A DNA stretch of 64,000 nt, from positions 1 through 64,000 of the forward strand of contig JADGPL010000011.1 in assembly GCA_017882455.1 (NCBI GenBank), in the 5' to 3' direction. Position 1 is the stretch's first letter. Every line of letters starts with the position of its first letter. The notes beneath the pieces were generated by a model. It saw only the letters and a program-made list of their open reading frames with translations. It was not told the DNA's origin and made no database searches. A program made the position numbers and the translations under genes. This DNA comes from Solirubrobacteraceae bacterium. Its GTDB lineage: Bacteria > Actinomycetota > Thermoleophilia > Solirubrobacterales > Solirubrobacteraceae. Below, in pieces: positions 42,409 through 61,080 of this stretch.

Positions 42409-42435
42409 TAATCGGCAGCGACGCACCTACGTTGA
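42409..42435 (-). promoter_or_regulatory. Sigma-28 (FliA)-like promoter of the CHAP gene
   Basis: Boxes TCAACGTA (42428-42435) and GCCGATTA (42409-42416) with an 11-nt spacer, compared with consensus TAAAGTTT-N11-GCCGATAA. The -10 ends 9 nt before the ATG, predicting an almost leaderless transcript. Confidence 0.6.
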
Positions 42436-42596
42436 GAAAGAGAGACGGGCGACCGTCGCCGCCCGCCTCGACCACCGTTCCCTCGATGAAGCGGCGGTAT
42501 ATGGCTTCTGCCGGCCACTTTCATGGCCGTCCGAAGCGTTATGACCCCCTGGCGGCGACCGATCGAAGACCGGCCGGCGATCAGACGGCTTCGCTG

Positions 42597-42627
42597 CAGC
42601 GGTGGCGTCCTCTAAACGCCACCGCTG
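42597..42627 (-). terminator. Terminator hairpin after flagellin
   Basis: CAGCGGTGGCG and CGCCACCGCTG form a perfect 11-bp stem with a 9-nt loop, 12 nt after the flagellin stop. No U-run follows. Confidence 0.8.
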
Positions 42628-42639
42628 AGGAAGATGTGA

Positions 42640-43425
42640 CTACTGCAGGAGCTTCAGAACGGCGTTCGGCAGCTGGTTGGCCTGCGCGAGGATCGACACG
42701 CCGGCCTGCTGGAGAACCTGCTCCTTGGTGAAGTTGGTCATTTCCGCAGCCATGTTGACGTCCTTGATCCCGCTCACCGCGGAGGCGAGATTCTGGCTGT
42801 AGACTTCCAGGTTGGAGATCGTGTACTGAACGCGGTTCTGCACCGAGCCGAATTCACCGGCGGCCGTCGTGACTTTGCTGATGGCTTCGTCGATGCTCTT
42901 GATTTCTTTGAGTTCGGCTTTTTCGGTGGCTTTTTCCAGCGCGAGGGTTTTGACGGCGATCACTTCTTCGTCGTTCGCGCCGACCTGGAAGGAGATCGTG
43001 GCTTCTTCGGAGAGCAGCGCCACTCCGTTGAACTTGGTCGTTTCACCGACGCGCTTGATCTCTTCTTTGAGCTGCGTGGCCTCAGATTCGATCGCTTCCT
43101 TGTCCGTTTCCGAGGTCGTGCCGTTGGCGAACTGCACGGCGAGCTCGCGGATGCGCTGGAGCATCCCGACGACGTCGTTGATCGAGCCCTGAGCCGTCTG
43201 TGCGAGCGAGATGGCGTCCTGGCTGTTCTGCGTCGCCTGGTTGAGGCCGTTGACCTGCGCCTGCAGCCGTTCGCTGATGGCGTAGCCGGCGACGTCGTCG
43301 GCGGCCGAGTTGACGCGCAGGCCCGAGGACAGGCGCTGCATCGAAGATGCCAGCATGTTCTCGGTGTTGTTGAGGTTCCTGCTCGCGTTCAGCGCCGCGA
43401 TGTTGGTGTTCACTGTTAGGGACAT
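42640..43425 (-). CDS. fliC: Flagellin
   Basis: 261-aa filament subunit, close to the minimal size, with D0/D1 helices and only a short central part. It starts MSLTVNTNIAALNASRNLNN, has RLSSGLRVNSAADDVAGYAISERL (about residues 32-55), and ends ILAQANQLPNAVLKLLQ, all textbook flagellin. The central insert (VGANDEEVIAVKTLALEKATEKAELKE) is lysine/glutamate-rich. AAGGAG precedes the ATG by 8 nt, and a clear sigma-28 promoter lies about 70 nt upstream. It is monocistronic, with an 11-bp terminator. Glutamate is nearly all GAA and many lysines are AAA, unlike flhA, flhF or fliM. Confidence 0.98.
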   Translation of the reverse strand: MSLTVNTNIAALNASRNLNNTENMLASSMQRLSSGLRVNSAADDVAGYAISERLQAQVNGLNQATQNSQDAISLAQTAQGSINDVVGMLQRIRELAVQFANGTTSETDKEAIESEATQLKEEIKRVGETTKFNGVALLSEEATISFQVGANDEEVIAVKTLALEKATEKAELKEIKSIDEAISKVTTAAGEFGSVQNRVQYTISNLEVYSQNLASAVSGIKDVNMAAEMTNFTKEQVLQQAGVSILAQANQLPNAVLKLLQ

Positions 43426-43491
43426 GCGTTCATCTCCTTGATGACGTTGTTGTGGTGGGTCCCGAGCCGACTCCGTGTCAACTCACGCCGT

Positions 43492-43518
43492 TTATCGTCA
43501 GCGCACCGGGAAACTTGA
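43492..43518 (-). promoter_or_regulatory. Sigma-28 (FliA) promoter of flagellin
   Basis: Boxes TCAAGTTT (43511-43518) and GACGATAA (43492-43499) are separated by exactly 11 nt, a near-consensus FliA promoter. The leader to the ATG would be about 60 nt. Confidence 0.85.
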
Positions 43519-43589
43519 GGGGAGGCCTCCCCCATATGGACGAGATTCCATGTCGGCCGCCGATCTCCTGCAAGGCGCGGGCGCCCTGC

Positions 43590-43808
43590 TCAGACGCGCA
43601 CGTCGATGTGGCGCGGCCCGTCCTCCCCATCCTCTCGATCCTCCGGCGGCGTCTTAGCGGCCTGCTCCCGGCGCTTACGCTGCTCGTCCTCGTCCTCGTG
43701 CGAGGGGCGGTCGCGCTCGCGCGATATCCGCTGCAGCCGCTGCACCGGCGGCACGCCCGCCCGTGGCAGCGCGGGCGGGCCGGGGGCGATCGGGTGGATC
43801 GGGTCCAT
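43590..43808 (-). CDS. Small charged protein of the flagellar operon
   Basis: 72 aa: MDPIHPIAPGPPALPRAGVPPV, then an Arg/Glu/Asp-rich stretch (RISRERDRPSHEDEDEQRKR) and the ending PRHIDVRV. It is probably disordered with a short conserved C-terminus. It starts 12 nt after the preceding gene on the same strand, with a GGGGA site four nt before the ATG, and its length and position between PilZ/FlhF genes and flagellin argue that it is real. I think comparable small genes sit at this place in related genomes, but this is recall, not a search. The function is unknown. Confidence 0.6.
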   Translation of the reverse strand: MDPIHPIAPGPPALPRAGVPPVQRLQRISRERDRPSHEDEDEQRKRREQAAKTPPEDREDGEDGPRHIDVRV

Positions 43809-43820
43809 CGCGTCCCCGGC

Positions 43821-44348
43821 CTAGCTGCCTGCTCTCGCGCCGGCGCGCCCACGCCCTGACGAGACGAGCGCGTCAGGCTGTCCCTGGGCTCCCTGCGTGG
43901 CCGCGAGCAGCCGCTGCTCGCGGGCCTTTATCTCGATCACCACGAGGCGGCGCCACGCGAACACCGCGCCCGCCCAGGCCGCGACGTAGCAGACGATCCC
44001 CGCGAGCAGGGCGCGTAGTCCTGCATCCACGGGCGTGGCGGTAGGCAGCGACAGGTAGCCCCCGATCAGAAAGCCCCCCAGCCCACCCCAGCTCTTGGCG
44101 CGGGCCACCGCGCGGGCGGCCCGAGGGTGAGCGGCGATGCTCGGCTCGCCGCCGGCCTCCTCGGCGGGTGCGCTGGCCTTCTTGCCCTTCTTGCCCTTGT
44201 CCTTCTTGCCCTTCTCGGACTTCTCGGCCTTGACCTCCGCGGGCGGATCGGCGGGGGCCTCCACCGCGGGAGCTTTCACCGGCGCAGCCGTGGCGAGCTC
44301 GGCGGCGAGCGTGGGGGCGGCGGCGGGTGCCTGCGCTTCAGCTGCCAT
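43821..44348 (-). CDS. Two-helix membrane protein of the flagellar operon
   Basis: 175 aa. The N-terminal 65 residues are Ala/Pro/Lys-rich, with a lysine block (EKSEKGKKDKGKKGKK). Then come two probable membrane segments (GLGGFLIGGYLSLPTATP and ALLAGIVCYVAAWAGAVFAW, about residues 88-130), a basic amphipathic helix (RRLVVIEIKAREQRLL) and a short tail. It overlaps the PilZ gene by 11 nt and is followed by the 72-aa gene. I do not recognise the family. Its place suggests an accessory to FlhF or PilZ motility control. Confidence 0.7.
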   Translation of the reverse strand: MAAEAQAPAAAPTLAAELATAAPVKAPAVEAPADPPAEVKAEKSEKGKKDKGKKGKKASAPAEEAGGEPSIAAHPRAARAVARAKSWGGLGGFLIGGYLSLPTATPVDAGLRALLAGIVCYVAAWAGAVFAWRRLVVIEIKAREQRLLAATQGAQGQPDALVSSGRGRAGARAGS

Positions 44349-45003
44349 CGCGCTCCTCGGTCTGCAGCCCGCGGCGGCGTTCGTTGCGCTGGCACTCGAA
44401 GATGAAACGGACGAGGCGCCGACGGTCGAGATCGCTGATGTCCTGGAAGGCGACCGCGAGGCGTCCCATGCCGTCGATGCGCACCACCTTGCCCCGTCCC
44501 GTTATCGGCAGCACTCCCTGGGTGATCGTGAGCTGGAACTTGACCTCCTCGCCGACCTTCAGGGTGTCGGGGCCCGCGAGCAGGAAACCGCCGCCGCTGA
44601 GATCGACCGTGTAGCTCTGGACCTCCTGGCGATCTCCGCCCGTGTAGACCACCACGGGCCGGGCGGACTGAATGCGAACGTACTCGCGTTCCTGGAGCAC
44701 CTCGATCGAGCGCGGCCCCTCGATGCGCAGCACGTCGGGCTCGCTCGGATCATCGATGACGGCGGTGCCGCACAGGCGCACGCGCCCACGCGGGCCCGCG
44801 TACTCGAGCACCATGCCGTCGAGATCGCTCGCGCCGAACGGCTTGGTAGGCACGAGCACGACGACGAGCAGCGCGTTGGGCTCGCGGGAGATCACGCGCG
44901 CGGGTACCCGCCCGCCGGCAGGAGTGCTGAGGATCACCGTCTCCGCGCGCCCGGGCAGCTGCATGGGCGTCGAGGCCTGGCGCTTGTCCCGTCGCAGTCT
45001 CAT
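44338..45003 (-). CDS. PilZ-domain c-di-GMP-binding protein (YcgR-like)
   Basis: 221 aa. The N-terminal YcgR-like barrel (about residues 10-95) is followed by a PilZ domain with the c-di-GMP pattern R-x3-R (EREYVRIQSARPVVVY, about 102-117) and D-x-S-x2-G (VDLSGGGFLLAG, about 132-143). The end RRLVRFIFECQRNERRR is typical of the family. Such proteins slow or redirect the flagellar motor when c-di-GMP is high. The ATG at 45003 overlaps the flhF stop (ATGA). Confidence 0.88.
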   Translation of the reverse strand: MRLRRDKRQASTPMQLPGRAETVILSTPAGGRVPARVISREPNALLVVVLVPTKPFGASDLDGMVLEYAGPRGRVRLCGTAVIDDPSEPDVLRIEGPRSIEVLQEREYVRIQSARPVVVYTGGDRQEVQSYTVDLSGGGFLLAGPDTLKVGEEVKFQLTITQGVLPITGRGKVVRIDGMGRLAVAFQDISDLDRRRLVRFIFECQRNERRRGLQTEERDGS

Positions 45004-46358
45004 GGCAGCAGTTTCGCGGCCAGGCCCGTCGGATCGATTCGCGTCAGCCGCCATCCGCCGGCGCGCGAGCGGGACCGGTCGAGCATGTACTCGGGGGCGA
45101 GGCCGAACATGCACGCCAGCTCGACCACCACGCCGATCTGATCGGTCTCCTCGGCGTGGGTCACAGCCAGCGCGTTGGCCCCGAGCGGCTTCAGCGCCTC
45201 GAGCAGTTGCGCGGCGGCGGTTGTGCCGAGCGTGGCGGGCAGGGCGATCACGACCCGCTCGGGCTTCAGAGCGCCGAGGAGCCGCGCCAGCTCGCGGATG
45301 CTCGTCCGATCGACCGGCGAGAGGCCCGGCGTGTCAACGACGGCCAGTCCGCCCGCCCTGGCGCTGCGCAGCGCGCGCAGCGCTCGCGGCGCGCTTGCGG
45401 GCGTGGGCTTCATGATCTGCGGGCTGAGGATCAGCTCGAGCTCCCCGCGCTCGGAGGGCCGCAGTAGCGTGGCGCAGCTCGCTGGAAGCGTGGAGCCTGT
45501 GCGGTATGCCCCGAGCAGGGCCGCACACGTGGTCGTCTTGCCCGCGCCCCCGGCGCCGACCAGCACGATCGCCGCGCCCTTGCTCGGCAACGCGGGCGCC
45601 ACCGGGATGCGCTGCACGAGCACGCTGCGAACAGCCTGGGCGAGCCCCAGGCGCGGCGCCAGCGGCAGCGTGTGAGCTGTGGCGGCGTCGATCAGCTCGC
45701 CCGCCAGCTCCTCGCTGATGCCAAGGCGGCGCAGGCTGCGCTCCACGCCCGCGCGGGCGCGCGCGTGTGAGCCCGGTGCGACCGTGCGACGTTCCGGTTG
45801 CAGCGGGGGCGCGGAGGCATGCTCCCGGCGGGCGCTCCCAGGCGGGGGCGGCAGCTGCTCGCGGGGGATCATCTCCTGGAAGTCGACGCCGAAGTCGGCC
45901 GACTCGCGGGGCCGCTGCGATGCGGGGGGACGGGGGACGAACTGCGGACGCTCGGCGCGCGCGAGGGCGGCGAGGTGAGCCGTCACATAGGCGCTGCCGT
46001 GGGCCGGGCGGGGTGGCGGCTCGCGCGTGAAGAAGGGCGGAGGCGGCGCGGCGGGAGGAGGAGGAGGAGGAGGAGGAGGAGGAGCTTGCGACGGCCGAGG
46101 CGCGAGCGCGGACGGGCGCGATGGTGGTGGCGGCGGTGCGGGCGGTACGGCGCTGTGCTCTTCGTCGTAGATGTCGATCCGCGGAGAGCCCGGCATCGCC
46201 TCGAGCTCCACGAACGGATGTTGGAAGAAGCCGAGGATCCCCCCCGTCAGACCCTCGCGGCGGCGCACGATGATCGCCTCGGAGCCCAGCTCGCGCTGGA
46301 TGCGGGGGATCAGCTCGTCGACCGCCCGGCCGCGGTAGGTGCGCGTGGGAGTGCTCAC
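45000..46358 (-). CDS. flhF: FlhF, SRP-type GTPase for flagellar placement
   Basis: 452 aa. The N-terminal B domain (TRTYRGRAVDELIPRIQRELGSEAIIV) is followed by a long proline-rich linker (about residues 75-135, with an uninterrupted run of ten prolines coded by CCT repeats). The NG GTPase core comes next: P-loop LVGAGGAGKTTTCAALL (about 265-281), DTPGLSPVD (about 345) and ALAVTHAEETDQIG, where the usual TKLDE motif is THAEE. FlhF sets the number and position of flagella. GTG start overlapping the flhA stop. Confidence 0.92.
   Translation of the reverse strand: MSTPTRTYRGRAVDELIPRIQRELGSEAIIVRRREGLTGGILGFFQHPFVELEAMPGSPRIDIYDEEHSAVPPAPPPPPSRPSALAPRPSQAPPPPPPPPPPAAPPPPFFTREPPPRPAHGSAYVTAHLAALARAERPQFVPRPPASQRPRESADFGVDFQEMIPREQLPPPPGSARREHASAPPLQPERRTVAPGSHARARAGVERSLRRLGISEELAGELIDAATAHTLPLAPRLGLAQAVRSVLVQRIPVAPALPSKGAAIVLVGAGGAGKTTTCAALLGAYRTGSTLPASCATLLRPSERGELELILSPQIMKPTPASAPRALRALRSARAGGLAVVDTPGLSPVDRTSIRELARLLGALKPERVVIALPATLGTTAAAQLLEALKPLGANALAVTHAEETDQIGVVVELACMFGLAPEYMLDRSRSRAGGWRLTRIDPTGLAAKLLP
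46054..46083. repeat. Ten-copy GGA triplet repeat in flhF
   Basis: A pure (GGA)10 tract on the plus strand, encoding ten consecutive prolines of FlhF. Copy-number slippage would change the linker length without breaking the frame. Confidence 0.9.
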
Positions 46359-48415
46359 GCGTGTATCACCCCGATCGTTTCAACGTTTATGCCTGGGGAG
46401 ATCTCGTTGTAGGAGCAGACCGCCAGGTGTGGCTGGGCCTGTGCGATCAGCCGGCGCAGGTGCCGGCGTACGCGCGCCGAGCACAGCAGCACGGGCTTGG
46501 CGCCGAGCCCCGTGGCGTGCTCGACCTGTGCCCGCAGCGCGGTCACGATCGCCTGCGCCCGCGGCGGGTCCATGGCGAGGTACTCGCCATCGGTGGTCTG
46601 GGTGATCGATGTGGAGACCTCCTGCTCGATTGAGGGGTCTAGTGTGATCGCTTGGAGGCGCAACTGCTCGTCCAGGTGCGGAGCTGTGATCGCCCGGCCC
46701 AACGCCTGGCGAGCGTACTCCGATAGGAGACTCGTGTCCCGTGTTGTTCGCGCCTTGTCGCCGATCGCCTCCAGGATCGTGCCGAGATCGCGGATCGGCA
46801 CGCCCTCGCCGAGCAGCGACTGCAGCACCCGCTGGATCTCTCCGAGCGAGAGCGCCTCGGGAACGACCTCATCGACGACGGCCGCGTTCGTCTCCTTGAG
46901 CCTGTCGAGCAGGGCGCGCACATCCTGGCGGGTGAGCAGCTCGGCGGCGTGCGTGCGGATCGTCTCGGTGAGGTGGGTCACGATCACCGACTCGGCGTCC
47001 ACGACCGTGTAGCCGAGCGACTCGGCCTCGGCGCGCCCGGACTCGTGCACCCACATGGCCTCCAGGCCGAAGGCGGGCTCGCGCGTGGGGATTCCCTGCA
47101 GCGTGCCACTGGCATCGCCCGGGTCCATCGCGAGCAGGTGGCCCGGCATGATCCGCCCGCGCGTGACCTCCGAGCCGCGGACCTTCAGGACGTACTCGTG
47201 GGACTCCATGCCGAGCTCGTCGTGGATGCGCACCGGCGGTATCACCAGGCCGAGCTCGCTGGCGATCTGGCGGCGGATCATGCTGACCCGCCGCAGCAGC
47301 GAACCACCGGAGCCACCGTCGACGAGCGGGACGAGGCCAAAGCCTATGGCGAGCTCCAGCGCGTCGATTCCCACCTCGCCCATCGGCTCCTGGCCGGGAG
47401 CCGGCAGCGCCGCCTTGGCGGCGGCCGCGTCCTTGGCCTCCTTGGCCTTGACTCCCGGCAGCCCGTCGCGCACGGCCCAGCCGACGGCGCCGAAGATCGC
47501 GGCGATGATGATGAACGGAAGCTTGGGCAGCCCGGGGATCAAGGCGAAGCCACCGATCGCGCCGGCGGCCACCAGGGGCGCCTTGCGCTGGGCCAGTATC
47601 TGCCCGGCGATGTCAGACCCGAGATCCCTGTCGGAGGCGGCGCGGGTGACGATGATGCCGGTGGCGACCGAGATCAGCAGCGCCGGGACCTGCGCGGCCA
47701 GGCCATCGCCGACCGTCAACAGCGAGTACTGGTGAGTGGCTTCGCTGAAGCCGAGGTGGCGCTGGGCCATGCCGACGATGATTCCGCCGACGAGGTTGAT
47801 CGCAGTGATGATCAGCGCAGCCATGGCGTCGCCTTTGACGAACTTGGACGCCCCGTCCATGGCGCCGTAGAAGTCCGCCTCGCGGGCGATGTCCGCGCGG
47901 CGCGCGCGTGCCTGTTCGTCTGTGATCAGACCCGCGTTGAGGTCGGCGTCGATCGCCATCTGCTTGCCGGGCATCGCGTCGAGCGTGAAGCGTGCGCCCA
48001 CCTCGGCCACACGCCCGGCGCCGTTGGTGACGACCACGAACTGGATCACCACGAGGATCAGGAAGATGACGAGGCCGACGACCACGTTGCCGCCGACGAC
48101 GAATTCGCCGAAGGACTTCACCACACTGCCGGCGTCGCCGCTGGTGAGGATCAGGCGCGTGACCGACACGTTGATCGCCAGGCGGAACATGGTTGTGAGC
48201 AGCAGAAGGCTCGGAAAGGACGCGAAGTCCAATGCCTTGCCGAGATACATGGTGGTCGCCACGATCGTGAGCGCAGCGGCGATGTTGACCGTGATCAGCA
48301 GGCTGAGCAGGGCCGACGGCAGCGGCACCACAAGCATCGTGACCACGAGCACCACCGCGACCGCCGCGAGCATGTCGGCGTGCGGCACGAACCTGCGCAG
48401 CGAGGCGCTGTTCAC
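46355..48415 (-). CDS. flhA: FlhA, flagellar export gate protein
   Basis: 686 aa. About eight membrane helices (residues 10-310) with conserved AGDADIARE-type parts: RVAEVGARFTLDAMPGKQMAIDADLNAGLITDEQARARR (about 140-180) is the FHIPEP region. The large cytosolic domain (about 340-686) includes GRIMPGHLLAMDPG and ends CSYNEISPGINVETIGVI. FlhA uses the proton motive force and docks chaperone-substrate complexes. The GTG at 48415 overlaps the flhB stop. Confidence 0.97.
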   Translation of the reverse strand: MNSASLRRFVPHADMLAAVAVVLVVTMLVVPLPSALLSLLITVNIAAALTIVATTMYLGKALDFASFPSLLLLTTMFRLAINVSVTRLILTSGDAGSVVKSFGEFVVGGNVVVGLVIFLILVVIQFVVVTNGAGRVAEVGARFTLDAMPGKQMAIDADLNAGLITDEQARARRADIAREADFYGAMDGASKFVKGDAMAALIITAINLVGGIIVGMAQRHLGFSEATHQYSLLTVGDGLAAQVPALLISVATGIIVTRAASDRDLGSDIAGQILAQRKAPLVAAGAIGGFALIPGLPKLPFIIIAAIFGAVGWAVRDGLPGVKAKEAKDAAAAKAALPAPGQEPMGEVGIDALELAIGFGLVPLVDGGSGGSLLRRVSMIRRQIASELGLVIPPVRIHDELGMESHEYVLKVRGSEVTRGRIMPGHLLAMDPGDASGTLQGIPTREPAFGLEAMWVHESGRAEAESLGYTVVDAESVIVTHLTETIRTHAAELLTRQDVRALLDRLKETNAAVVDEVVPEALSLGEIQRVLQSLLGEGVPIRDLGTILEAIGDKARTTRDTSLLSEYARQALGRAITAPHLDEQLRLQAITLDPSIEQEVSTSITQTTDGEYLAMDPPRAQAIVTALRAQVEHATGLGAKPVLLCSARVRRHLRRLIAQAQPHLAVCSYNEISPGINVETIGVIHA

Positions 48416-49482: not shown

Positions 49483-49488
49483 CTGGAT

Positions 49489-50537: not shown

Positions 50538-50568
50538 GAGATGGCGGGGATCGGGAGCGGGTTTCTCA

Positions 50569-51219
50569 TCAGTGGAAGCTCTGCACGAGGGCTTTGATGA
50601 CCAGGTCCCAGCCGTCGACCAGGACGAACAGGAGGATCTTGAACGGCAGCGAGATGAAGGTGGGCGGCAGCATGATCATGCCCATGCTCATCAGCGTCGA
50701 AGAGACGATCAGGTCGATGATCAGGAATGGCAGGAAGATCAAGAAGCCGATCTGAAACGCGGTCTTGAGCTCCGAGATGATGAAGGCCGGGATCAGCACC
50801 TCGGTGGGCACTTCGGCACGCTTGTGCGGCGCCTTGTCGTGGGCCAGGCTGACGAACAGCGAGATGTCCTGGGTGCGCGTCTGGCGGAACATGAATTCGC
50901 GCAGCGGCTCCTCGGCGCGTTTGATTGCCGTGGTCGTGCTGATCTGGTGGTGTGTGAGCGGTTCGACCGCGTCTTTCTTGATCGTGTTGATGGTCGGCGC
51001 CATCACGAAGATCGTCAGGAACAGGGCGATGCCGACCAGCACCTGGTTGGGCGGGGCGCTGGCCGTGCCGACAGCGGTGCGGATGAAGCCGAGCACGATC
51101 AGGATCCGGCTGAACCCCGTCACGGTGAAGAGCACCGCCGGGACGAGCGTCAGGCCGCCGATCAGCAGCAGGACCTGGACGGCGTTGGAGGAGTTGAGGT
51201 TCAACGGCGCACCGTCCAT
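50569..51219 (-). CDS. fliP: FliP, export apparatus membrane protein
   Basis: 216 aa. Segments VTGFSRILIVLGFIRTAVGTASAPPNQVLVGIALFLT, ELKTAFQIGFLIFLPFLIIDLIVSSTLMSMGMIMLPP and SLPFKILLFVLVDGWDLVIKALV are diagnostic. It lacks the cleaved N-terminal signal sequence found in many proteobacterial FliP proteins. The start lies inside the end of fliO (19-nt overlap). Confidence 0.97.
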   Translation of the reverse strand: MDGAPLNLNSSNAVQVLLLIGGLTLVPAVLFTVTGFSRILIVLGFIRTAVGTASAPPNQVLVGIALFLTIFVMAPTINTIKKDAVEPLTHHQISTTTAIKRAEEPLREFMFRQTRTQDISLFVSLAHDKAPHKRAEVPTEVLIPAFIISELKTAFQIGFLIFLPFLIIDLIVSSTLMSMGMIMLPPTFISLPFKILLFVLVDGWDLVIKALVQSFH

Positions 51220-51854
51220 TCACGCACACGCTCGATCAGACCCGAGGACGGCGAGGGCATGCGCATCGGATCGGGACGGTGTCCTCCGGAGGCGCCGGCG
51301 CCCCAATGCTGCTCGGAGCTCATCGGACCGAGCCGCGGCTCGGATGCCTTGGTGGCGCTCAGCAGCGAGCGTCGTGGGCGGGGGGGCGGCGGATCGAGCA
51401 GCGGCAGGCCGGCCGCGCGCGCCTGCTCCTCGGTGTAGCGGTGGATCGGGACCAGGCCGTGCTCGCCGGCCCCGAGCAGCACATAGTCGCTTCCGGCTCG
51501 CACCAGATGCACCGAGCGTCCCGAGCCGAGCGTGAGCGCGGCCACACTGGCCAGCCCGGCGGTGGAGATCTGCGGGTCGCGCCCCGCCTTGACCTGGCGC
51601 AGGATCCAGTAGAGCCCCCAGATCACGGCGATGACGATCGCGAGACCGACGATCGTGCGCACGATGCTGGCCCCACCTGAGCTCGTCTGCGGCGCGGTCG
51701 AGGAGGGGCTGAGGTTCAGGGGCGTGTTTTCGCCGCCCGCTTTGCTGCTCGCCAGCGCCAGCGCCGTGACCGGGCAGGCGAACGCGAGCAGGCAGGCGCC
51801 AAGCACCGCGGCCACCTGCGCGACCGCACGGGAAAGCGGGATCAGCTTAGTCAT
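51201..51854 (-). CDS. fliO: FliO, flagellar biosynthesis protein
   Basis: 217 aa. The signal-like N-terminus (AVAQVAAVLGACLLAFACPVTALA) is followed by one membrane helix (IVRTIVGLAIVIAVIWGLYWILRQVKAG, about residues 63-90). The compact FliO domain reads LTLGSGRSVHLVRAGSDYVLLGAGEHGLVPIHRY (about 106-140). A Pro/Ser-rich tail follows. FliO helps assemble the FliP ring. A hairpin and a sigma-28-like promoter lie immediately upstream, in the 133-nt gap after the fliM-N gene. Confidence 0.88.
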   Translation of the reverse strand: MTKLIPLSRAVAQVAAVLGACLLAFACPVTALALASSKAGGENTPLNLSPSSTAPQTSSGGASIVRTIVGLAIVIAVIWGLYWILRQVKAGRDPQISTAGLASVAALTLGSGRSVHLVRAGSDYVLLGAGEHGLVPIHRYTEEQARAAGLPLLDPPPPRPRRSLLSATKASEPRLGPMSSEQHWGAGASGGHRPDPMRMPSPSSGLIERVREWTVRR

Positions 51855-51857
51855 CGA

Positions 51858-51884
51858 GGGACGACTCCGAGGAAGAGTCGTCCC
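51858..51884 (-). promoter_or_regulatory. Leader hairpin sequestering the fliO ribosome site
   Basis: GGGACGACTC and GAGTCGTCCC form a perfect 10-bp stem with a 7-nt loop ending 3 nt before the fliO ATG. The only ribosome-site-like GGAG lies in the start of the proximal arm, so the hairpin could block initiation. Confidence 0.6.
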
Positions 51885-51887
51885 CGG

Positions 51888-51914
51888 TTATCGGCCCGAG
51901 TGGGCGGGGCTTGA
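51888..51914 (-). promoter_or_regulatory. Sigma-28-like promoter upstream of fliO
   Basis: TCAAGCCC (51907-51914), an 11-nt spacer, then a perfect GCCGATAA -10 (51888-51895). It would start transcription just before the fliO hairpin and could drive fliO to flhF. Confidence 0.6.
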
Positions 51915-51987
51915 GGCGGGCAATCCCGACGCCGAGCGACGGAGGCGGGCCGGCGCCGCAGAAGCCATGAGCCCTCAGATGAGGACG

Positions 51988-53301: not shown

Positions 53302-53308
53302 GGCTCGA

Positions 53309-53713: not shown

Positions 53714-53721
53714 GCTCTCTC

Positions 53722-54156
53722 CTATTGGACGGTGAGGTCTGGGAACAGCACCGATTCGGCTTTGACGTCCGTCTGCTTCGTGATGGCAGCCAGTATCTGG
53801 TGGCGGATTGCGAGCCTACTGTGAGCGTCCACGAGCACTTCACCGCTCTGGTTGGTCACGGCGTTGGTCACGATTTCACGAACGAGCGGTTCCTCGGGCA
53901 GGGTCCCTGCCGATTCCGAGCTCGAGGAGCTCGCCCCGGCGGTCGCGCCATCGCTCTGCCCGGGCGCCAGCTGCAGCGCCACGGTGAGCTTTGCGTAGCG
54001 ACCGTCGGAGAGGTTGAGCAGGAACGACTGCGGCATCACATAGATGGTGCCCTTGATCTTCTCCTTGACCACGGGCTTGGGCTTGGTCATGGTGTAACCG
54101 CCGAACAACAGGATCGGAAGCGCGACGGCGAGCATGATCTTCTTGTTCTTGAACAT
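53722..54156 (-). CDS. fliL: FliL, motor-associated membrane protein
   Basis: 144 aa with one N-terminal membrane helix (IMLAVALPILLFGGYTM, residues 7-23) and the FliL domain (YVMPQSFLLNLSDGRYAKLTVALQLAPG, LPEEPLVREIVTNAVTNQ). It supports stator function at the motor. The ATG lies 12 nt after motB. Confidence 0.9.
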   Translation of the reverse strand: MFKNKKIMLAVALPILLFGGYTMTKPKPVVKEKIKGTIYVMPQSFLLNLSDGRYAKLTVALQLAPGQSDGATAGASSSSSESAGTLPEEPLVREIVTNAVTNQSGEVLVDAHSRLAIRHQILAAITKQTDVKAESVLFPDLTVQ

Positions 54157-54168
54157 TGTCTTCCCTGA

Positions 54169-55035: not shown

Positions 55036-55036
55036 C

Positions 55037-55840
55037 TCAGGCTGCCTGCGCCTCGACGTTGAGGGGAGCCACGTTGTCCTCGCCGTCGGCCCGCTCGACG
55101 GGGGGCAGATAGGACATCAGCTTTTCGGAGACCAGCCGCGGGTTATCGCCCGCCTGGATCGAGAGAATGCCCTCGAGCGTCATCATGCGCAGCTCGATCT
55201 CTTCGGCCGAGATCGCCTTCAGGCGGTTTGCGATCGGTAGGAAGATCACGTTGGCGGCGCCCACGCCCATCAGCGTGGCGATGAAGGCGGCCGAGATGGA
55301 CGGGCCGAGCGTGGCGGGCGCGGCGAGGTTCTGCAGCACGTGCACGAGGCCGAGCACCGTGCCGATGATCCCCATCGTCGGGGCGAATCCCCCGGCCTTC
55401 TCGAACGGCGCCGCGGAGGCCTCGTGGCGGGCGGCCATCCCGTCGACCTCGGCCTCGAGGATCGTGTGGACCATCTCGGGGTCGGTCCCGTCGACGACCA
55501 GTTGCAGGGCGTTGCGGGTGAAGCGGTCCTCGATCTCGCCGAGCTGGGCGTCGAGCGCCAGCAGCCCCTCGCGACGGGCCTTGTCGGCGAGCGCGACGAG
55601 CCGGTCCAGCTGGCCGCGCATGTCAGGCGGTTCGGCCGAGAACACCATCTTGTAGAGGCTGGGCACGCGCTTCATCGAGTCCATGCCGACGCTCGCGAGC
55701 GTCACGCCCGCGGTGCCACCCAGGATGATCATGAGCGCGGGGATGTTTATGAACGAGGCCGGACTGGTCCCGTCCATCATCGAGCTCATGATCAGGGAGC
55801 CAAAGGCCAGCCCTATTCCAATGGCCGTTGCAGCCTTCAT
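55037..55840 (-). CDS. motA: MotA, stator protein
   Basis: 267 aa with four membrane helices, including FINIPALMIILGGTAGVTLASVG (residues 30-52), APTMGIIGTVLGLVHVLQNL (about 155-174) and SAAFIATLMGVGAANVIFLPIANRL (about 184-208). A cytoplasmic loop carries charged residues (MKRVPSLYKMVFSAEPPDM) for the rotor contact. It forms the proton-driven stator with MotB. Spacing and signature match PomA/MotA of Gram-positive bacteria. A weak sigma-28-like promoter lies directly upstream. Confidence 0.96.
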   Translation of the reverse strand: MKAATAIGIGLAFGSLIMSSMMDGTSPASFINIPALMIILGGTAGVTLASVGMDSMKRVPSLYKMVFSAEPPDMRGQLDRLVALADKARREGLLALDAQLGEIEDRFTRNALQLVVDGTDPEMVHTILEAEVDGMAARHEASAAPFEKAGGFAPTMGIIGTVLGLVHVLQNLAAPATLGPSISAAFIATLMGVGAANVIFLPIANRLKAISAEEIELRMMTLEGILSIQAGDNPRLVSEKLMSYLPPVERADGEDNVAPLNVEAQAA

Positions 55841-55849
55841 TGCCCCCTT

Positions 55850-55876
55850 TCATCGGCTGGTGCACGCAATCCTTCA
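55850..55876 (-). promoter_or_regulatory. Possible sigma-28-like promoter of motA
   Basis: TGAAGGAT (55869-55876), 11 nt, GCCGATGA (55850-55857), with the -10 ending 9 nt before the motA ATG. This is weaker than the flagellin and fliJ sites but has the same geometry. Confidence 0.4.
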
Positions 55877-55934
55877 GTCCTGCACGGCCGAGCTGCACAA
55901 ACTGACGAATGCGCCCCAGCGTGGGGCTCAGCTC

Positions 55935-56225
55935 TCAGCTCGGCGTGTCCTCGACCGCGGAGAGCCGCGGCGACTCGCGGCGAAGTCCCGCCGGCCCGGG
56001 CGCCGGCTGGCGCGGGGTGCCACGACGGCGCAGAGCGTCGCTGAGGACAGCGGCGCGGTTGGCATGCACCGCCGCCACGACCTCCTCGGGCGTCTCGGCC
56101 ACCACGACCTTCGCCCCGGTGGCGAGTGCGATCACCGTGTCCGGCGTCGATTCCACGGTCACGATCATGTCGGGGTTCAGTTGGAATGGCTCGTCGCTGT
56201 GTCCGAGCCGGTTGAGCGTGATCAT
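55935..56225 (-). CDS. flbD: FlbD-family flagellar protein
   Basis: 96 aa. The N-terminal 60 residues, ITLNRLGHSDEPFQLNPDMIVTVESTPDTVIALATGAKVVVAETPEEVV, match the small FlbD/SwrD family of Gram-positive bacteria, which in Bacillus (SwrD) boosts motor power. The C-terminal 35 residues (RRRGTPRQPAPGPAGLRRESP) are a disordered extension. GAGGGAG precedes the ATG at 56225 by five nt. It sits between the hook gene and motA-motB, in line with a stator-related role. Confidence 0.85.
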   Translation of the reverse strand: MITLNRLGHSDEPFQLNPDMIVTVESTPDTVIALATGAKVVVAETPEEVVAAVHANRAAVLSDALRRRGTPRQPAPGPAGLRRESPRLSAVEDTPS

Positions 56226-56258
56226 CGCTGCTCCCTCGTTGCGATTACATAGCCGCGG

Positions 56259-56289
56259 GGTGGGACGGCGACGAGCGCGCCGCCCCACC
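56259..56289 (-). terminator. Hairpin in the flgE-flbD gap (possible attenuator)
   Basis: GGTGGGACGGCG and CGCCGCCCCACC pair over 12 bp with one mismatch around a 7-nt loop, in the 150-nt gap between flgE and flbD. No U-run follows. It could partly terminate transcription so that hook protein is made in excess. Confidence 0.5.
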
Positions 56290-56375
56290 TCGGGCTCCTC
56301 GGAGTGTCTCTCGACTGATACCCCCTTCTTCCTCGTCTTCAGATCTGATCGCAGAAGCTGCCGTGCCGGCGGCTC

Positions 56376-57272
56376 CTACGCCATCGTCACCACCGTCTGC
56401 AGCATTTCGGCCGCAGTGGTGATCACGCGCGAGTTGGCCTGATAGCCGCGCTCGGCGGTGATCATGTTGGTCATCTCGGTGGCAAGGTCGACGTTGGACA
56501 TCTCGAGCACCCCGCCGATCGTGGAGCCGAACCCGGGCGTGTCGGGGGTGCCGACTATCGGGGTACCCGAGTTGGCGGTCTGCGCCCACAGCGATCCACC
56601 GAGCCGTTCGAGCCCGGATTCGTTGGCGAACGTGGCGAGTGACACGAATCCCGCCGTGACGCGCTGCTGGTAGGTTTTCGATTCGGGGTTGTTGTCGGTG
56701 TAGCTGACCGATCCGTCCTGTCCGATCGTGATGTTGGTCGATCCCGGCGGAATCCGCAGGAAGCTGTCTTCTTTGCCGGGTGCGTAGGTCGTACCGGCTT
56801 CGCCCACGGTCGCCACTGCGTTGCGGCCGATCACGTATTCGCCGGCCGAGGTCGTGAGGAACCCCTGCGTGTTCGTGGTGAGGTCTCCGGCGCGCGTGTA
56901 GTCGACGTTCGCCGGCAGGCCGCTCGTATACGGTTCTTTGGCAGGCGGGGTGCCGGCTCCCACGCGCAGGAAGCCCGAACCCTCGATCGCGACGTCGAGC
57001 GGGTTGTTGGTGGACTGGAAGGAGCCCTCGGTCATTTCGTTGTGGGTCGCGTTGACCTGCACGCCGAGGCCTATCTGCACGGGGTTCGACCCTCCGTTGG
57101 TGCTCGTCGGCCCAGAGGCGCCGCGGATCACCTGTGTGAGCTCATCGGCGAATGTGACACTCGAGGCCTTGTAGCCCACGGTGTTCACGTTCGCCAGGTC
57201 CGAGGCGGTGTCGTTGAGCATCGCCTGGTTCGCGTCGAGGCCGCTGATCGCGGCATACATTCCTGCCATCAT
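56376..57272 (-). CDS. flgE: Flagellar hook protein (FlgE/FlgF/FlgG family)
   Basis: 298 aa. The N-terminus MYAAISGLDANQAMLNDTASDLANVNTVGYKAS is the rod/hook signature. The middle has NPLDVAIEGSGFLRVG and DYTRAGDLTTNTQGFL, and the C-terminus is SNVDLATEMTNMITAERGYQANSRVITTAAEMLQTV. It is shorter than typical FlgE (about 400 aa) and could be read as FlgG. The neighbours FliK, FlgD and the TIGR02530-type gene point to the hook protein. Glutamate and lysine codons are mostly GAA and AAA. The ATG-ATG start at 57272 follows a 69-nt gap. Confidence 0.88.
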   Translation of the reverse strand: MMAGMYAAISGLDANQAMLNDTASDLANVNTVGYKASSVTFADELTQVIRGASGPTSTNGGSNPVQIGLGVQVNATHNEMTEGSFQSTNNPLDVAIEGSGFLRVGAGTPPAKEPYTSGLPANVDYTRAGDLTTNTQGFLTTSAGEYVIGRNAVATVGEAGTTYAPGKEDSFLRIPPGSTNITIGQDGSVSYTDNNPESKTYQQRVTAGFVSLATFANESGLERLGGSLWAQTANSGTPIVGTPDTPGFGSTIGGVLEMSNVDLATEMTNMITAERGYQANSRVITTAAEMLQTVVTMA

Positions 57273-57341
57273 CCTGACTGCCCTTCCTTTCGCGGCCTCC
57301 TCGTCGAGGTCCAGCCGCAGCTTGAGCCGTTTCGCCCTCTC

Positions 57342-57755
57342 TCAGGCGATCACGGCGCTGTCGATGTTGGTGAACACGTTGTCTTTCATCTGCTGCGATC
57401 CCACGGCGGTTATCACCGTGCGGTTGCTGACGGACACCACGAATGCGGTGCCGTCGACAAGAACCAGGGAGTCGCGCGAGCCCTTGCTCGCGGCGCGTCC
57501 CACCCCGTCGGAGAGCCTGGAGAGCGTGGAGGCGTCCAGCTCGATCCCGCGGCGTTCGACGCGCGCCAGCGCGTGGCGCGAGAACTGAAGCGGCTGGGCG
57601 CCCCCGGCCTGCTCGAGGGCCTCGGCGAAGCTCGGGGTGCCGGCGGCGCCCGGTGTCGAGCTGGGTTTGGCGGCCTGCCCGGGCGCGGGCGCGGGGGCGG
57701 ACGGACCGGTGAGCCCTCCGGGCGGAACCAGAGCGGGATTCGAGATGGTGCTCAA
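57342..57755 (-). CDS. Flagellar operon protein, TIGR02530-type
   Basis: 137 aa. The C-terminal 85 residues, FSRHALARVERRGIELDASTLSRLSDGVGRAASKGSRDSLVLVDGTAFVVSVSNRTVITAV, match the small unnamed family found beside flgD/flgE in many Gram-positive flagellar operons. The N-terminal part is Pro/Ala-rich and contains GTPSFAEALEQA (Phe43), a motif also in FliK and the two wall hydrolases. Start TTG at 57755, overlapping the flgD stop (TTGA). The function is unknown; hook-assembly or export roles are plausible. Confidence 0.82.
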   Translation of the reverse strand: MSTISNPALVPPGGLTGPSAPAPAPGQAAKPSSTPGAAGTPSFAEALEQAGGAQPLQFSRHALARVERRGIELDASTLSRLSDGVGRAASKGSRDSLVLVDGTAFVVSVSNRTVITAVGSQQMKDNVFTNIDSAVIA

Positions 57756-58153
57756 TGGACTTCCGTGATGCTCGAGAGCTTGACGCCGGGGACGCCTTCG
57801 ATCGTGACCGTGGTGCCCGATGCGGTGGACTGGACCGCCTGGACCGCGCCGGTGGCCTTTTCGCCGGAGGTGTTGGTGTAGGAGACCGTTCGCCCGATCA
57901 GGGCGACCGCACCCGAGAGCTCGCTGGCGTTTGCGAGGTTGGTCGTCTGCTCGACCTGCGTGAACTGCGCGAGCTCGCTGACGTATTCGTTGGTGTTGGC
58001 CGGCTGCAGGGGATCCTGCGACTGCAGCTGGGCGATCATCAGTTTGAGGAAGTCGTTCTGGCCCAGGACGCTGCTGGGGTTTTCCGGGGCCGGGGAGGAC
58101 TTCGGCGAGGCCGCAGCGGCGGCCTGGGCGGTGGGGACTGGGCTGGCGCTCAT
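57752..58153 (-). CDS. flgD: FlgD, hook-cap scaffolding protein
   Basis: 133 aa. The conserved FlgD N-terminal region is complete: LGQNDFLKLMIAQLQSQDPLQPANTNEYVSELAQFTQVEQTTNLAN (about residues 30-76). A short beta part follows (IGRTVSYTN, VTIEGVPGVKLSSITEV). The later Ig/tudor-like domain of enteric FlgD is missing, as in many Gram-positive versions. NDFLKLM (Phe35) fits the export-gate motif of hook subunits. It follows fliK after 18 nt. Confidence 0.94.
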   Translation of the reverse strand: MSASPVPTAQAAAAASPKSSPAPENPSSVLGQNDFLKLMIAQLQSQDPLQPANTNEYVSELAQFTQVEQTTNLANASELSGAVALIGRTVSYTNTSGEKATGAVQAVQSTASGTTVTIEGVPGVKLSSITEVH

Positions 58154-58171
58154 GTTGCTTGTCCTTTCATC

Positions 58172-59923
58172 TCAGGCGAGCACGTCCACGAGACGGCCGG
58201 CCGGCGACCCGACAGGCGCAGATGTGCCGTCGAGGCCGAGTGACTGGGTGCTCTCTCCCTCATCGGGAGAGGTCGAGGTGGTCGAGGCGGACTGTTCGCC
58301 GGCTCCGGCGAAGCGCCCTTCGTGCTCGCCCGACTGGGACTGCCCGAAGGTGGATACGTCGAGGCGCAGCAGCGAGACCCCGAGCGAGCTGAGCGACTGG
58401 TGGAGATCGGCGCGTCCCTGGGCGAGCGCCTGTGCGGCGGCGGGCGTATCCGCGGTGACTCGCGCGGTCAGGCCGTCGGCGGTCTGGGAGAGATGGATGC
58501 GTATTTCGCCGAGCTCGGCGGGCTGCAACGCGATCCGCGCCTGCGTGAGCCCCTGCCGCGCGGCCAGGTCGATCGTGGCCCGGATCGCGTCGATCATGTC
58601 CTGCATGCCGACCCCTGTGCCCAGCACGGGCGCGTCCGAAGCGCTGGTTGGCGATGGCGTGGCGGGCCCTTCGATGCCTGATGTCGCCACCAGGCTCGCG
58701 TCACCGGCCTGGGCCGTGGAACCCGTCTCGCTCGCCGAAGCCACAGCCACGAGGGCCGCCGGACGTCCTTGACCGCGACCGGGACCGCTGGAGTCGCCGC
58801 CCGCTGCCTGTCCGCCGGGCTGCTGGGCCGCGGGGGCGCTCACTCCCGGGGCGGCCGTGCCAGCGGGACCGGATGCCGATCTCGCGGCGTGAGCCAGCTG
58901 ACCGGCGACTGCGTCCGCCGTCACAGCGCTGCTCGCGAGCTGTGCCTGGGCCGGGGAGCTCTGCGGCGGAGCGGCCTCTGCCTGCGCCGGCGTGGCAGGG
59001 GAGCCGACCGGCTGTTCTGGGACGTCGCTCGGCGCCGCTGTTTGCACGACAGGTTCGAGCACGGACGGCGTTGGCGACGCTGCCCCTTCCAGCGCCCGGC
59101 CCCCCGCTGCGGGACTCGCCGCAGCCTGTGTGAGCGTGGGAGTCGTGGAGCCTGGCGCCGCTTCGGTGGGCCCCGGCGCCGGTTCAGCGTGCCCCGGCGC
59201 CGCTTCGGCCGGTCGGGAGGTGGGGCTGACCGGCGCCTGCAGCGGGACGGTGTCAGAGCTGGCAGACGTTGCAGGCGGCGCTAGGGCTACGGAGGCGTCC
59301 GTGCTGCCAGGCGCCGCGAGGCTTGCGGGCGCCGCGGGGATCGCGGCGGTCGTGGGGTTCGCGGCAGCTGGCTGGGCGCCGCCCTGGTCAGCGGCGGGCG
59401 CGGCGGCGAGCGGCGGCGGGGCGGGCGCCGCCACGACAACCGTGGGAGCGGGCGCGGGGTCGAGGAGTACCGGCGCCTGAGCAGCGCCCGGGCTGACGAC
59501 CGGGGACGAGCCGGACGCGGTGGGTGTCGAGAACGCGGTGGGTGTGGATGACGGCGTGGGGGTGGCAGCGGCTCCCGAGAGGGCGGACGGCGAGGCGAGC
59601 TGCCCGTGAGCGTCAGCGGCGGCTGATGGCGGCTTGGCTTCGGATTCTGCGGCCGGGGCTGCGGTCGGCGTCGAGGCAGAGCTGTCGCCGGCAGCGGCTT
59701 CTGTGGCGGCTTCTGTGCCTTGCTCGCGGTGAGCGGGCGCCATCCTGGCGCCGTGCCGTTCTGTGTCGCCTTGCTGATGGCCTTCCGCGTCTGCGGTCCG
59801 GGCCCAATGTTCGGCGAGCGCGCTCTGGAAGAGCGGCGCTCCCGGCGGCCCGCCGGGCGGCGCGGGCCCGGCGCTCGGCGGCGGGGCACTCGGCGGTGGC
59901 ACGGGCGCGGACACGACGATCAT
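58172..59923 (-). CDS. fliK: FliK, hook-length control protein
   Basis: 583 aa. Residues 1-400 are low-complexity Ala/Pro/Ser/Thr-rich ruler sequence. The C-terminal Flg_hook domain (about 460-550) reads RIALQPAELGEIRIHLSQTADGLTARVTADTPAAAQALAQGRADLHQSLSSLGVSLLRLDV, the expected FliK core that contacts FlhB. A Gly/Ser-rich tail follows. The N-terminus has LFQSALAEHW (Phe32), matching the FxxxL export motif. The ATG at 59923 overlaps the transglycosylase stop (ATGA). Confidence 0.92.
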   Translation of the reverse strand: MIVVSAPVPPPSAPPPSAGPAPPGGPPGAPLFQSALAEHWARTADAEGHQQGDTERHGARMAPAHREQGTEAATEAAAGDSSASTPTAAPAAESEAKPPSAAADAHGQLASPSALSGAAATPTPSSTPTAFSTPTASGSSPVVSPGAAQAPVLLDPAPAPTVVVAAPAPPPLAAAPAADQGGAQPAAANPTTAAIPAAPASLAAPGSTDASVALAPPATSASSDTVPLQAPVSPTSRPAEAAPGHAEPAPGPTEAAPGSTTPTLTQAAASPAAGGRALEGAASPTPSVLEPVVQTAAPSDVPEQPVGSPATPAQAEAAPPQSSPAQAQLASSAVTADAVAGQLAHAARSASGPAGTAAPGVSAPAAQQPGGQAAGGDSSGPGRGQGRPAALVAVASASETGSTAQAGDASLVATSGIEGPATPSPTSASDAPVLGTGVGMQDMIDAIRATIDLAARQGLTQARIALQPAELGEIRIHLSQTADGLTARVTADTPAAAQALAQGRADLHQSLSSLGVSLLRLDVSTFGQSQSGEHEGRFAGAGEQSASTTSTSPDEGESTQSLGLDGTSAPVGSPAGRLVDVLA

Positions 59924-60591
59924 GGCAGGCTCCCTGCGCTCGTCGCTGGGTTCGCCTGACGGTAGCTTTCGGCGTAGCCGAGCACTTTGGAGACGTAGCT
60001 CTGCGTTTCGGCATAGGGCGGCACTCCGCCGTACTGCTGGACCGCCCCCGGGCCCGCGTTGTACGCGGCCAGCGCATCGGTCGTGTTTCCGCCGAACTTG
60101 CTCATCATCTGGCTCAGGTAGCGCGCGCCCCCTTCGATCGATTCAGCCGGGTTCAAGGGGTTGGCCACCCCCATCGAGGAGGCCGTGCCCGGCATCAGCT
60201 GGGTCAGGCCACTCGCACCCACGCTGCTCTGCGAGTTGGGATCGAAGCCCGACTCCTGCTGGATCAGGCCGTGCAGCACGGCGGGGTCCAGCCCGTAGCG
60301 CTGAGCGGCTTGGGCGATCAGGGCGTCGTAGGGGGTCGACTGCGAGGAGCCGCTCGAGCCCTGGGCGGCGGCAGGAGTCGCAGAAGCGGCAGTGGCGCTC
60401 TGCAACGCCTGGGCGAAGGCGGGTGAGCCGGAGGAGGCCGGCGCGGCGCCAGCGGTCGTGGGCGGCGCGGGCACCGCTCCGGTGGCGGCCTGGCGCGTCT
60501 GTTCGACGAGGGCCTGGAGCTGCGCGACTCGCTGGGAGACGGCGAGCTCCCCCGCCGGCGCAGAGGCTGCCGTCAGCGCTTCGGTGCTCAC
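59920..60591 (-). CDS. Lytic transglycosylase (SLT domain) of the flagellar operon
   Basis: 223 aa. The C-terminal SLT domain (about residues 86-205) carries LHGLIQQESGFDPNSQ with catalytic Glu113, GASGLTQLMPGTASSMG and ALAAYNAGPGAVQQYGGVPPY. It cuts peptidoglycan glycan strands. The N-terminal 85 residues are Ala/Pro/Ser-rich with no Sec signal and contain SPAFAQALQSA (Phe59), the motif shared with FliK and the CHAP hydrolase. GTG start overlapping fliJ (GTGA). A FlgJ-like role in opening the wall for rod passage is inferred. Confidence 0.9.
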   Translation of the reverse strand: MSTEALTAASAPAGELAVSQRVAQLQALVEQTRQAATGAVPAPPTTAGAAPASSGSPAFAQALQSATAASATPAAAQGSSGSSQSTPYDALIAQAAQRYGLDPAVLHGLIQQESGFDPNSQSSVGASGLTQLMPGTASSMGVANPLNPAESIEGGARYLSQMMSKFGGNTTDALAAYNAGPGAVQQYGGVPPYAETQSYVSKVLGYAESYRQANPATSAGSLP

Positions 60592-61046
60592 GCCGGGCTC
60601 CGGCGGAAGCGAATGGTGGCAATCTCATCGAGCGCGTTGCGCTCGCGGCGCTCCATCTCGCGGTCGTGCTCGCCGCGGTGGCGCTCGCGCAGGCGGTTGA
60701 GCATCTCGTGCTCGCTGGCGGCGCTGGCAAGCTCGGCGTCGCGGTTGGCCACGTCGGTCTCACACCGTTGGAGCTCTTGGGCGTGCAGCCCGCGCTGGGT
60801 CTCGATCCGCTCGAGGAACGCCTGGCGCGCCTGCAGCTCGGTGGCGCTCACGGTCGCCGCGCCGGCTGTGACGCTGCGCTGCTCGGTGCGCGCGTGCTCG
60901 AGATCGGCCTCGGCGCCGCGCAGCTCCTCCTCGGTGCTCGCGCGGCGTGAGACCGCTTTGGCGAGCTCCTGCTGGGCGAGCTTCTCCTTGCGCTCGCGCA
61001 CCGCCCGGACGCGCTCCAGGCGAAATCGAAACGAGGGCCCAGTCAT
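60588..61046 (-). CDS. fliJ: FliJ, export chaperone
   Basis: 152-aa, almost entirely helical coiled coil (FRFRLERVRAVRERKEKLAQQELAKAVSRR at residues 6-35; LRERHRGEHDREMERRERNALDEIA near the end), as expected for FliJ, which activates the FlhA gate together with FliI. A strong sigma-28-like promoter lies in the 63-nt gap after fliI, with the -10 only 7 nt before the ATG. Confidence 0.9.
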   Translation of the reverse strand: MTGPSFRFRLERVRAVRERKEKLAQQELAKAVSRRASTEEELRGAEADLEHARTEQRSVTAGAATVSATELQARQAFLERIETQRGLHAQELQRCETDVANRDAELASAASEHEMLNRLRERHRGEHDREMERRERNALDEIATIRFRRSPA

Positions 61047-61053
61047 TGCCTGT

Positions 61054-61080
61054 TTATCGGACGGGGTCTCGGGTTCTTTA
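61054..61080 (-). promoter_or_regulatory. Sigma-28-like promoter upstream of fliJ
   Basis: TAAAGAAC (61073-61080), an 11-nt spacer and TCCGATAA (61054-61061). The -10 ends 7 nt before the fliJ ATG, predicting a leaderless transcript. Together with the fliO site it would let FliA boost genes in the middle of the operon. Confidence 0.65.

What the first reader, a model, noticed from the sequence alone, without database searches (positions are those of the whole stretch)
42409..61080. A set of sigma-28 promoters with invariant 11-nt spacers, several leaderless, inside the flagellar island
Boxes like TAAAG-N14-CCGATAA occur before flagellin (43492-43518), the CHAP hydrolase (42409-42435), fliO (51888-51914) and fliJ (61054-61080), with a weaker one before motA (55850-55876). 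In three cases (CHAP, fliJ, motA) the -10 ends only 7-9 nt before the ATG, predicting leaderless mRNAs. Late-sigma promoters inside export-apparatus genes would create a positive feedback loop unlike the enteric hierarchy.
Basis: partly seen in the sequence, partly recalled or inferred. Interest (0 to 1): 0.75.

Follow-up and report, generated by a model that had tools for sequence, protein, structure and literature searches.

The report
FliA promoters, often leaderless, flagellar island
In this soil actinobacterium and its relatives, nearly every flagellar operon, early parts included, carries a conserved promoter for the flagellar sigma factor FliA, often so close to the start codon that the mRNA should have almost no leader; this suggests one switch turns on the whole flagellum rather than the step-wise cascade of E. 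coli.

Summary
All five boxes exist, on the minus strand, as canonical sigma-28 sites of 8-11-8 (TMAAGNNN-N11-GCCGATMA). An E. coli consensus scan ranks fliC, fliJ, fliO and motA 1st to 4th in the window and CHAP 6th. High scores occur essentially only at spacer 11. The genome is a Solirubrobacteraceae MAG (Actinomycetota). Islands from 27 relatives show the boxes conserved at fliJ, motA, fliO and fliC, and at further units outside the window: flgB(-flgC-fliEFGHI), fliS, flaG-fliD, flgF and flgG. Boxes are about 90% identical within the genus, spacers 39%. Operon-internal genes lack them. At fliJ, motA, CHAP, fliS and flgF the -10 ends 7-11 nt before the start in most genomes. With the E. coli sigma-28 start (6 bp past the -10) these mRNAs are leaderless or have leaders of a few nt; this is inferred, with no RNA data. 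The likely reader is a FliA-class sigma encoded in the island, which tracks flagella, rather than WhiG, found with or without flagella. The claimed positive feedback is not supported: fliA has no box here, no FlgM was found here, and E. coli FliA also transcribes fliLMNOPQR. One sigma driving flagellar genes is already reported in Actinoplanes; the conserved near-leaderless layout appears to be the new part.

The parts
42409..42435 (-). sigma-28-type promoter box before the CHAP gene (TCAACGTA-N11-GCCGATTA), -10 ends 9 nt before ATG
   Evidence: rank 6; also in G020 at 8 nt; other relatives
41617..42399 (-). CHAP-domain protein, 260 aa, predicted leaderless
   Evidence: Pfam CHAP PF05257 E 3e-11; start codon
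43492..43518 (-). sigma-28-type promoter box of flagellin (TCAAGTTT-N11-GACGATAA), 66 nt leader region
   Evidence: rank 1; 7 of 17 genomes
42640..43425 (-). flagellin fliC, 261 aa, with AAGGAG ribosome site
   Evidence: Pfam flagellin N and C domains; AAGGAG upstream in 14 of 18 genomes
51888..51914 (-). sigma-28-type promoter box of fliO (TCAAGCCC-N11-GCCGATAA), 33 nt before ATG
   Evidence: rank 3; 16 of 19 genomes
51855..51882 (-). predicted fliO leader, mostly one hairpin ending just before ATG
   Evidence: stem-loop also in relatives
51201..51854 (-). fliO, first gene of fliOPQR-flhBA
   Evidence: Pfam FliO; flhA, flhB
55850..55876 (-). sigma-28-type promoter box of motA (TGAAGGAT-N11-GCCGATGA), -10 ends 9 nt before ATG
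   Evidence: rank 4; 10 of 21 genomes at spacer 11, 4 more at spacer 12
55037..55840 (-). motA, predicted leaderless
   Evidence: Pfam MotA_ExbB
61054..61080 (-). sigma-28-type promoter box of fliJ (TAAAGAAC-N11-TCCGATAA), -10 ends 7 nt before ATG
   Evidence: rank 2; 9 of 22 genomes at spacer 11, all at 7-8 nt; 4 more at spacer 12
60588..61046 (-). fliJ, predicted leaderless, followed by SLT, fliK, flgD, flgE
   Evidence: Pfam FliJ, SLT, Flg_hook, FlgD, Flg_bbr_C

Best explanation
The boxes are genuine promoters for a FliA-class (sigma-28) sigma factor encoded in the same flagellar island (C3:72469-73281, about 8.5 kb past the window end). Shown from sequence: nearly every transcription unit of the island begins with a conserved box TMAAGNNN-N11-GCCGATMA; operon-internal genes do not; the box stays within 7-11 nt of the start codon at fliJ, motA, CHAP, fliS and flgF in most genomes that have it. 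Inferred: RNA polymerase with FliA starts 6-8 nt past the -10, on or just before the start codon, giving leaderless or near-leaderless mRNAs for these genes and short leaders for fliO, fliC, flgB, flgG and flaG-fliD. Inferred: because basal body, export, rod, hook, stator and filament units all carry the box, FliA activity is the on-switch for most of the flagellum, and timing between early and late parts must come from elsewhere (promoter strength, translation, export), not from a sigma cascade.
For: E. coli-derived matrix ranks four of the five boxes 1-4. In 1.2 Mb of islands from 28 genomes, scores of 10.5 or more: 44 at spacer 11, 7 at 12, 0-2 at any other from 3 to 21. Genome-wide, all 3 exact matches of TMAAG-N14-GCCGATMA in 3.3 Mb lie in the flagellar island (fliO, flaG-fliD, flgG) and 6 of the 27 with at most one mismatch do; most of the other 21 lie inside coding frames. 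Per gene, boxes of 9 or more within 110 nt at spacer 11: fliO 16/19, fliJ 9/22, motA 10/21, fliC 7/17, flgB 14/26, fliS 14/24, flgF 14/25, flgG 11/25; none for flgK, flgL, flgN, fliF, fliG, fliH, fliQ, fliR, flhB, motB. flaG-fliD boxes (FlaG identified in relatives). Pairwise identity within the genus: -35 core 0.93, -10 0.87, spacer 0.39, 15 nt upstream 0.41. Distance 7-11 nt in 42 of 49 spacer-11 sites at fliJ, motA, CHAP, fliS, flgF. E. coli aer starts 6 bp past the sigma-28 -10 octamer (PMC2859248). FliA-class sigma present in 26 of 27 FliI-positive relatives and 9 of 73 FliI-negative ones, Fisher p 2e-15.
Against: No RNA evidence of any kind; the genome appears to be a metagenome assembly. 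Conservation is incomplete: about half the relatives fall below my score cut at fliJ, motA or fliC, so turnover or weaker sites exist. The near-leaderless layout was not seen at motA outside the order. Nine relatives have the FliA-class sigma without a detected FliI. Score weights are my own reading of the textbook consensus. Identity figures for boxes are biased upward because sites were picked by score.
Confidence: 0.82

Rival explanations
1. The boxes are read by the second sigma of the same family, the WhiG orthologue (C27:121957-122700), perhaps under c-di-GMP control by RsiG, rather than by the island's FliA.
For: WhiG and FliA share promoter specificity (PMC8325347). The genome has a clear WhiG, 370.8 bits against a cut-off of 343. 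WhiG reads such promoters in Rubrobacter, a sister class.
Against: WhiG-class proteins are present in flagellated and unflagellated relatives alike, while the FliA-class protein tracks FliI and lies among flagellar genes. In Rubrobacter WhiG targets are type IV pilus and c-di-GMP genes.
Confidence: 0.12
2. The boxes are FliA promoters, but fliJ, motA, CHAP, fliS and flgF are mainly read through from upstream operons or from other promoters, so that leaderless mRNAs are minor products.
For: fliJ follows fliI by 63 nt and motA follows flbD by 94 nt on the same strand, so read-through is possible.
Against: The 7-11 nt placement persists across two families while spacers and flanks diverge, which suggests the position itself matters.
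Confidence: 0.2
3. Chance resemblance in a GC-rich genome.
For: GCCGATCA-like strings are common here: 436 sites at up to two mismatches genome-wide.
Against: Spacer controls, shuffles, placement and conservation.
Confidence: 0.01

Closest known systems
E. coli/Salmonella class 3 sigma-28 (FliA) promoters, TAAAGTTT-N11-GCCGATAA
   Same: Same two octamers and the same 11-nt spacer (PMC2859248); fliC, motA and fliDST-type targets shared; the E. coli fliL operon containing fliO is also a FliA target (PMC4183435).
   Different: -35 is TMAAG with a preceding C; -10 ends MA with CCRGG after it; flgB-fliEFGHI, flgF and flgG units carry boxes here; start codon within 7-11 nt at five genes; no FlgM found in this genome.
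Actinoplanes missouriensis flagellar cluster under FliA-family sigmas
   Same: Actinobacterial flagellar genes under WhiG-like flagellar sigmas (stated in PMC8325347). From memory of Jang et al. 2016, which the library does not hold: eleven mapped starts share CTCA-N15-17-GCCGAA, suggesting one sigma for all flagellar genes.
   Different: Different class (Actinomycetia, zoospores); the consensus here is closer to E. coli; leaderless layout not known to me from that work and not checkable here.
WhiG/RsiG switch of Rubrobacter and Streptomyces
   Same: Same promoter class; a WhiG orthologue is present here.
   Different: Targets there are pilus, c-di-GMP or sporulation genes, not flagellar ones (PMC8325347).

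Membership tests
sigma-28 (FliA) dependent promoter | -35 TAAA(G) and -10 GCCGATAA octamers | tested here: met
   the second-last base of the -10 is C more often than A in this clade
sigma-28 (FliA) dependent promoter | 11-nt spacer between octamers | tested here: met
   a minority of 12 in relatives
sigma-28 (FliA) dependent promoter | cognate FliA-class sigma in the genome | tested here: met
   TIGR02479 191.7 bits against cut-off 189.6; below the narrower FliA model (170.9 against 201)
sigma-28 (FliA) dependent promoter | transcription start 6-8 nt past the -10, dependent on FliA | not testable with these tools
   needs RNA and a mutant or in vitro transcription
leaderless mRNA | 5' end at or within a few nt of the start codon | tested here: inconclusive
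   -10 ends 7-11 nt before the start at five genes, conserved; the 5' end itself is not measured
enteric three-tier hierarchy with FlgM checkpoint | FlgM anti-sigma in the genome | tested here: not met
   no PF04316 match over cut-off; a profile of relatives' FlgM-like proteins finds none in G000 (assembly about 95% complete, 150 of 164 first-look candidates scored). FlgM-like proteins exist in many relatives.
enteric three-tier hierarchy with FlgM checkpoint | basal-body and rod operons not under FliA | tested here: not met
   conserved boxes at flgB (14/26), flgF (14/25), flgG (11/25)

The most novel reading that the evidence does not exclude
In Solirubrobacterales, essentially the whole flagellum is one FliA regulon without a sigma cascade, and many of its mRNAs are leaderless because the promoter abuts the start codon; assembly order would then be set after transcription, and in species without FlgM there would be no export-coupled sigma checkpoint.
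Probability: 0.4. Interest if true: 0.68.

Novelty: new variant of a known kind. Interest (0 to 1): 0.52.

Why it matters
Flagellar assembly is the textbook case of just-in-time gene expression by a sigma/anti-sigma cascade. A large actinobacterial clade whose early and late flagellar genes share one FliA promoter type would be a natural test of whether that cascade is needed for ordered assembly. It also links a specific sigma factor to leaderless translation: the promoter position, not only the mRNA, would fix how these genes are translated.

Tried and rejected
Literal N14 pattern: no match. The site at 41539 before the Fic gene: rank 5, but a normal ribosome site overlaps it and the gene is absent from the relatives' islands; rejected. 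FlgM in G000: the Pfam hit at C27:71529 lies in a 525-codon frame that reads like cytidylate kinase (my reading); rejected. Box upstream of fliA: none at spacer 11 within 110 nt in any genome, only three weak spacer-12 candidates. GT gene: no box in this genome though 7 of 18 relatives have one. Near-leaderless motA box across the phylum: not found outside the order; another actinobacterial family of lower GC uses mostly spacer-12 boxes 52-69 nt upstream with ribosome sites. Actinoplanes papers PMC4966450, PMC6597397 and PMC11522434 are not held.

Full report
Observation. The five boxes are on the minus strand at the stated coordinates and read as 8-11-8 sigma-28 sites. The shorthand in the finding is off by one base (N15 to CCGATAA). 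Using the E. coli consensus with my own position weights, and no information from these boxes, fliC, fliJ, fliO and motA are the four best of about 128,000 positions in the window, and CHAP is sixth. Scores of 10 or more occur four times at spacer 11 and once in total at spacers 5-10 and 12-18. A dinucleotide-shuffle control on a degenerate pattern gave 5 matches against 0.35 expected.

Where it is. The genome is 3.3 Mb in 51 contigs. Named relatives put it in Solirubrobacteraceae, order Solirubrobacterales, Actinomycetota. The island runs past the window end: fliF, fliE, flgC, flgB, fliS, fliD, a flaG-like gene and a glycosyltransferase-like gene on the minus strand, then fliA, flgF, flgG, flgN, flgK and flgL on the plus strand (gene names outside the window are partly my reading of the sequences; FliS, FlaG by two relatives).

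Full set of boxes in this genome, numbered on contig C3 (the window is C3:1-64000). In the window: CHAP, fliC, fliO, motA, fliJ. Beyond it: flgB (67164-67190), fliS (about 67942-67968), flaG-fliD (69800-69826), flgF (about 73309-73335), flgG (74071-74097). All three exact genome-wide matches of TMAAG-N14-GCCGATMA lie in the island: fliO, flaG-fliD and flgG. Of the 21 one-mismatch matches elsewhere, most are inside coding frames.

Conservation. FliI was found in 27 of 100 relatives and their islands were fetched. Over 1.2 Mb the count of high-scoring sites peaks sharply at spacer 11, with a minor peak at 12. Per gene, boxes lie at the starts of transcription units (fliO 16 of 19 genomes, flgB 14/26, fliS 14/24, flgF 14/25, flgG 11/25, motA 10/21, fliJ 9/22, fliC 7/17), and genes inside operons have almost none. 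Within the genus, boxes are 0.87-0.93 identical against 0.39 for the spacer and 0.41 for the 15 nt upstream; the box figure is inflated by selection on score, the low spacer figure is not. The clade consensus is C-TMAAG-N3-N11-GCCGAT-MA followed by a CCRGG-like stretch.

Leader length. At fliJ, motA, CHAP, fliS and flgF the -10 ends 7-11 nt before the start codon in 42 of 49 spacer-11 sites. E. coli aer RNA starts 6 bp past the -10 octamer (PMC2859248). That rule leaves leaders of about 2-6 nt, and a start on the nearest purine often falls at or next to the start codon. There is no room for a ribosome site between a start there and the start codon. fliC keeps AAGGAG in most genomes. Leaderless genes are common in Actinobacteria (my own knowledge), so this is plausible translation biology, but no 5' end has been measured.

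Which sigma. Two FliA/WhiG-family sigmas are above the family cut-off. The one at C27, beside an integrase-like recombinase that I read as XerC, is WhiG by NCBI's equivalog cut-off; the one in the island is over the family cut-off but below the narrower FliA model. Among 100 relatives the island type occurs in 26 of 27 FliI-positive and 9 of 73 FliI-negative genomes (Fisher p 2e-15); the WhiG type occurs in both sets. I therefore assign the boxes to FliA, with WhiG as a rival because the two share specificity (PMC8325347).

Feedback and hierarchy. The feedback claim needs fliA, or the release of FliA, to depend on these promoters. No spacer-11 box lies within 110 nt before fliA. FlgM was not found in this genome by the Pfam model or by a profile of relatives' FlgM-like proteins, though many relatives have one. 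In E. coli, FliA already transcribes fliLMNOPQR but not flgB or fliF (PMC4183435). The real difference here is that the flgB unit and the flgF and flgG units carry boxes. A single-sigma flagellar regulon is not new for the phylum: PMC8325347 states that Actinoplanes flagellar genes are directed by WhiG-like flagellar sigmas, and I recall Jang et al. 2016 drawing that conclusion for all flagellar genes (not held).

Reach. A draw of 296 genomes across the phylum, with the 30 best MotA loci read, shows no near-leaderless motA box of good score outside the order. This bears on motA only.

Limits. No expression data; start codons are predicted and were checked only by alignment; matrix weights are mine; relatives were chosen by having FliI.

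Noticed in passing
window 51855-51887 (minus strand), fliO leader: The predicted fliO leader is mostly one hairpin (GGACGACUCUUCCUCGGAGUCGUCC, z -3.0) beginning about at the predicted transcription start and ending a few nt before ATG. Stem-loops of different sequence (for example CGACCCG/CGGGTCG) occupy the same leader in relatives.
   Followed up: partly
upstream of fliO (window about 51855-51862) and of fliA (about 20 nt before its ATG at C3:72469): A TCCCTC(G) motif close to the start codon is shared by the fliO (9/19 genomes) and fliA (7/22) leaders against about 0.7% expected; function unknown.
   Followed up: partly
relatives G016, G031, G033, G035, G044, G051, G053, G055, G056, G070, G076 (L194-L205): Short FlgM-like proteins are found in many flagellated relatives, none in this genome.
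   Followed up: partly
G024, G048, G073, G086, G096: Genomes with the FliA-class sigma but no detected FliI; either missing contigs or another role for this sigma.
   Followed up: no
window 40195-41529: A Fic/DOC-family gene sits directly after the CHAP gene and is absent from all relatives' islands fetched.
   Followed up: no
L212, L215-L218, L221-L223 (actinobacterial family f26): motA there has sigma-28 boxes with 12-nt spacers, 52-69 nt upstream, with ribosome sites.
   Followed up: no
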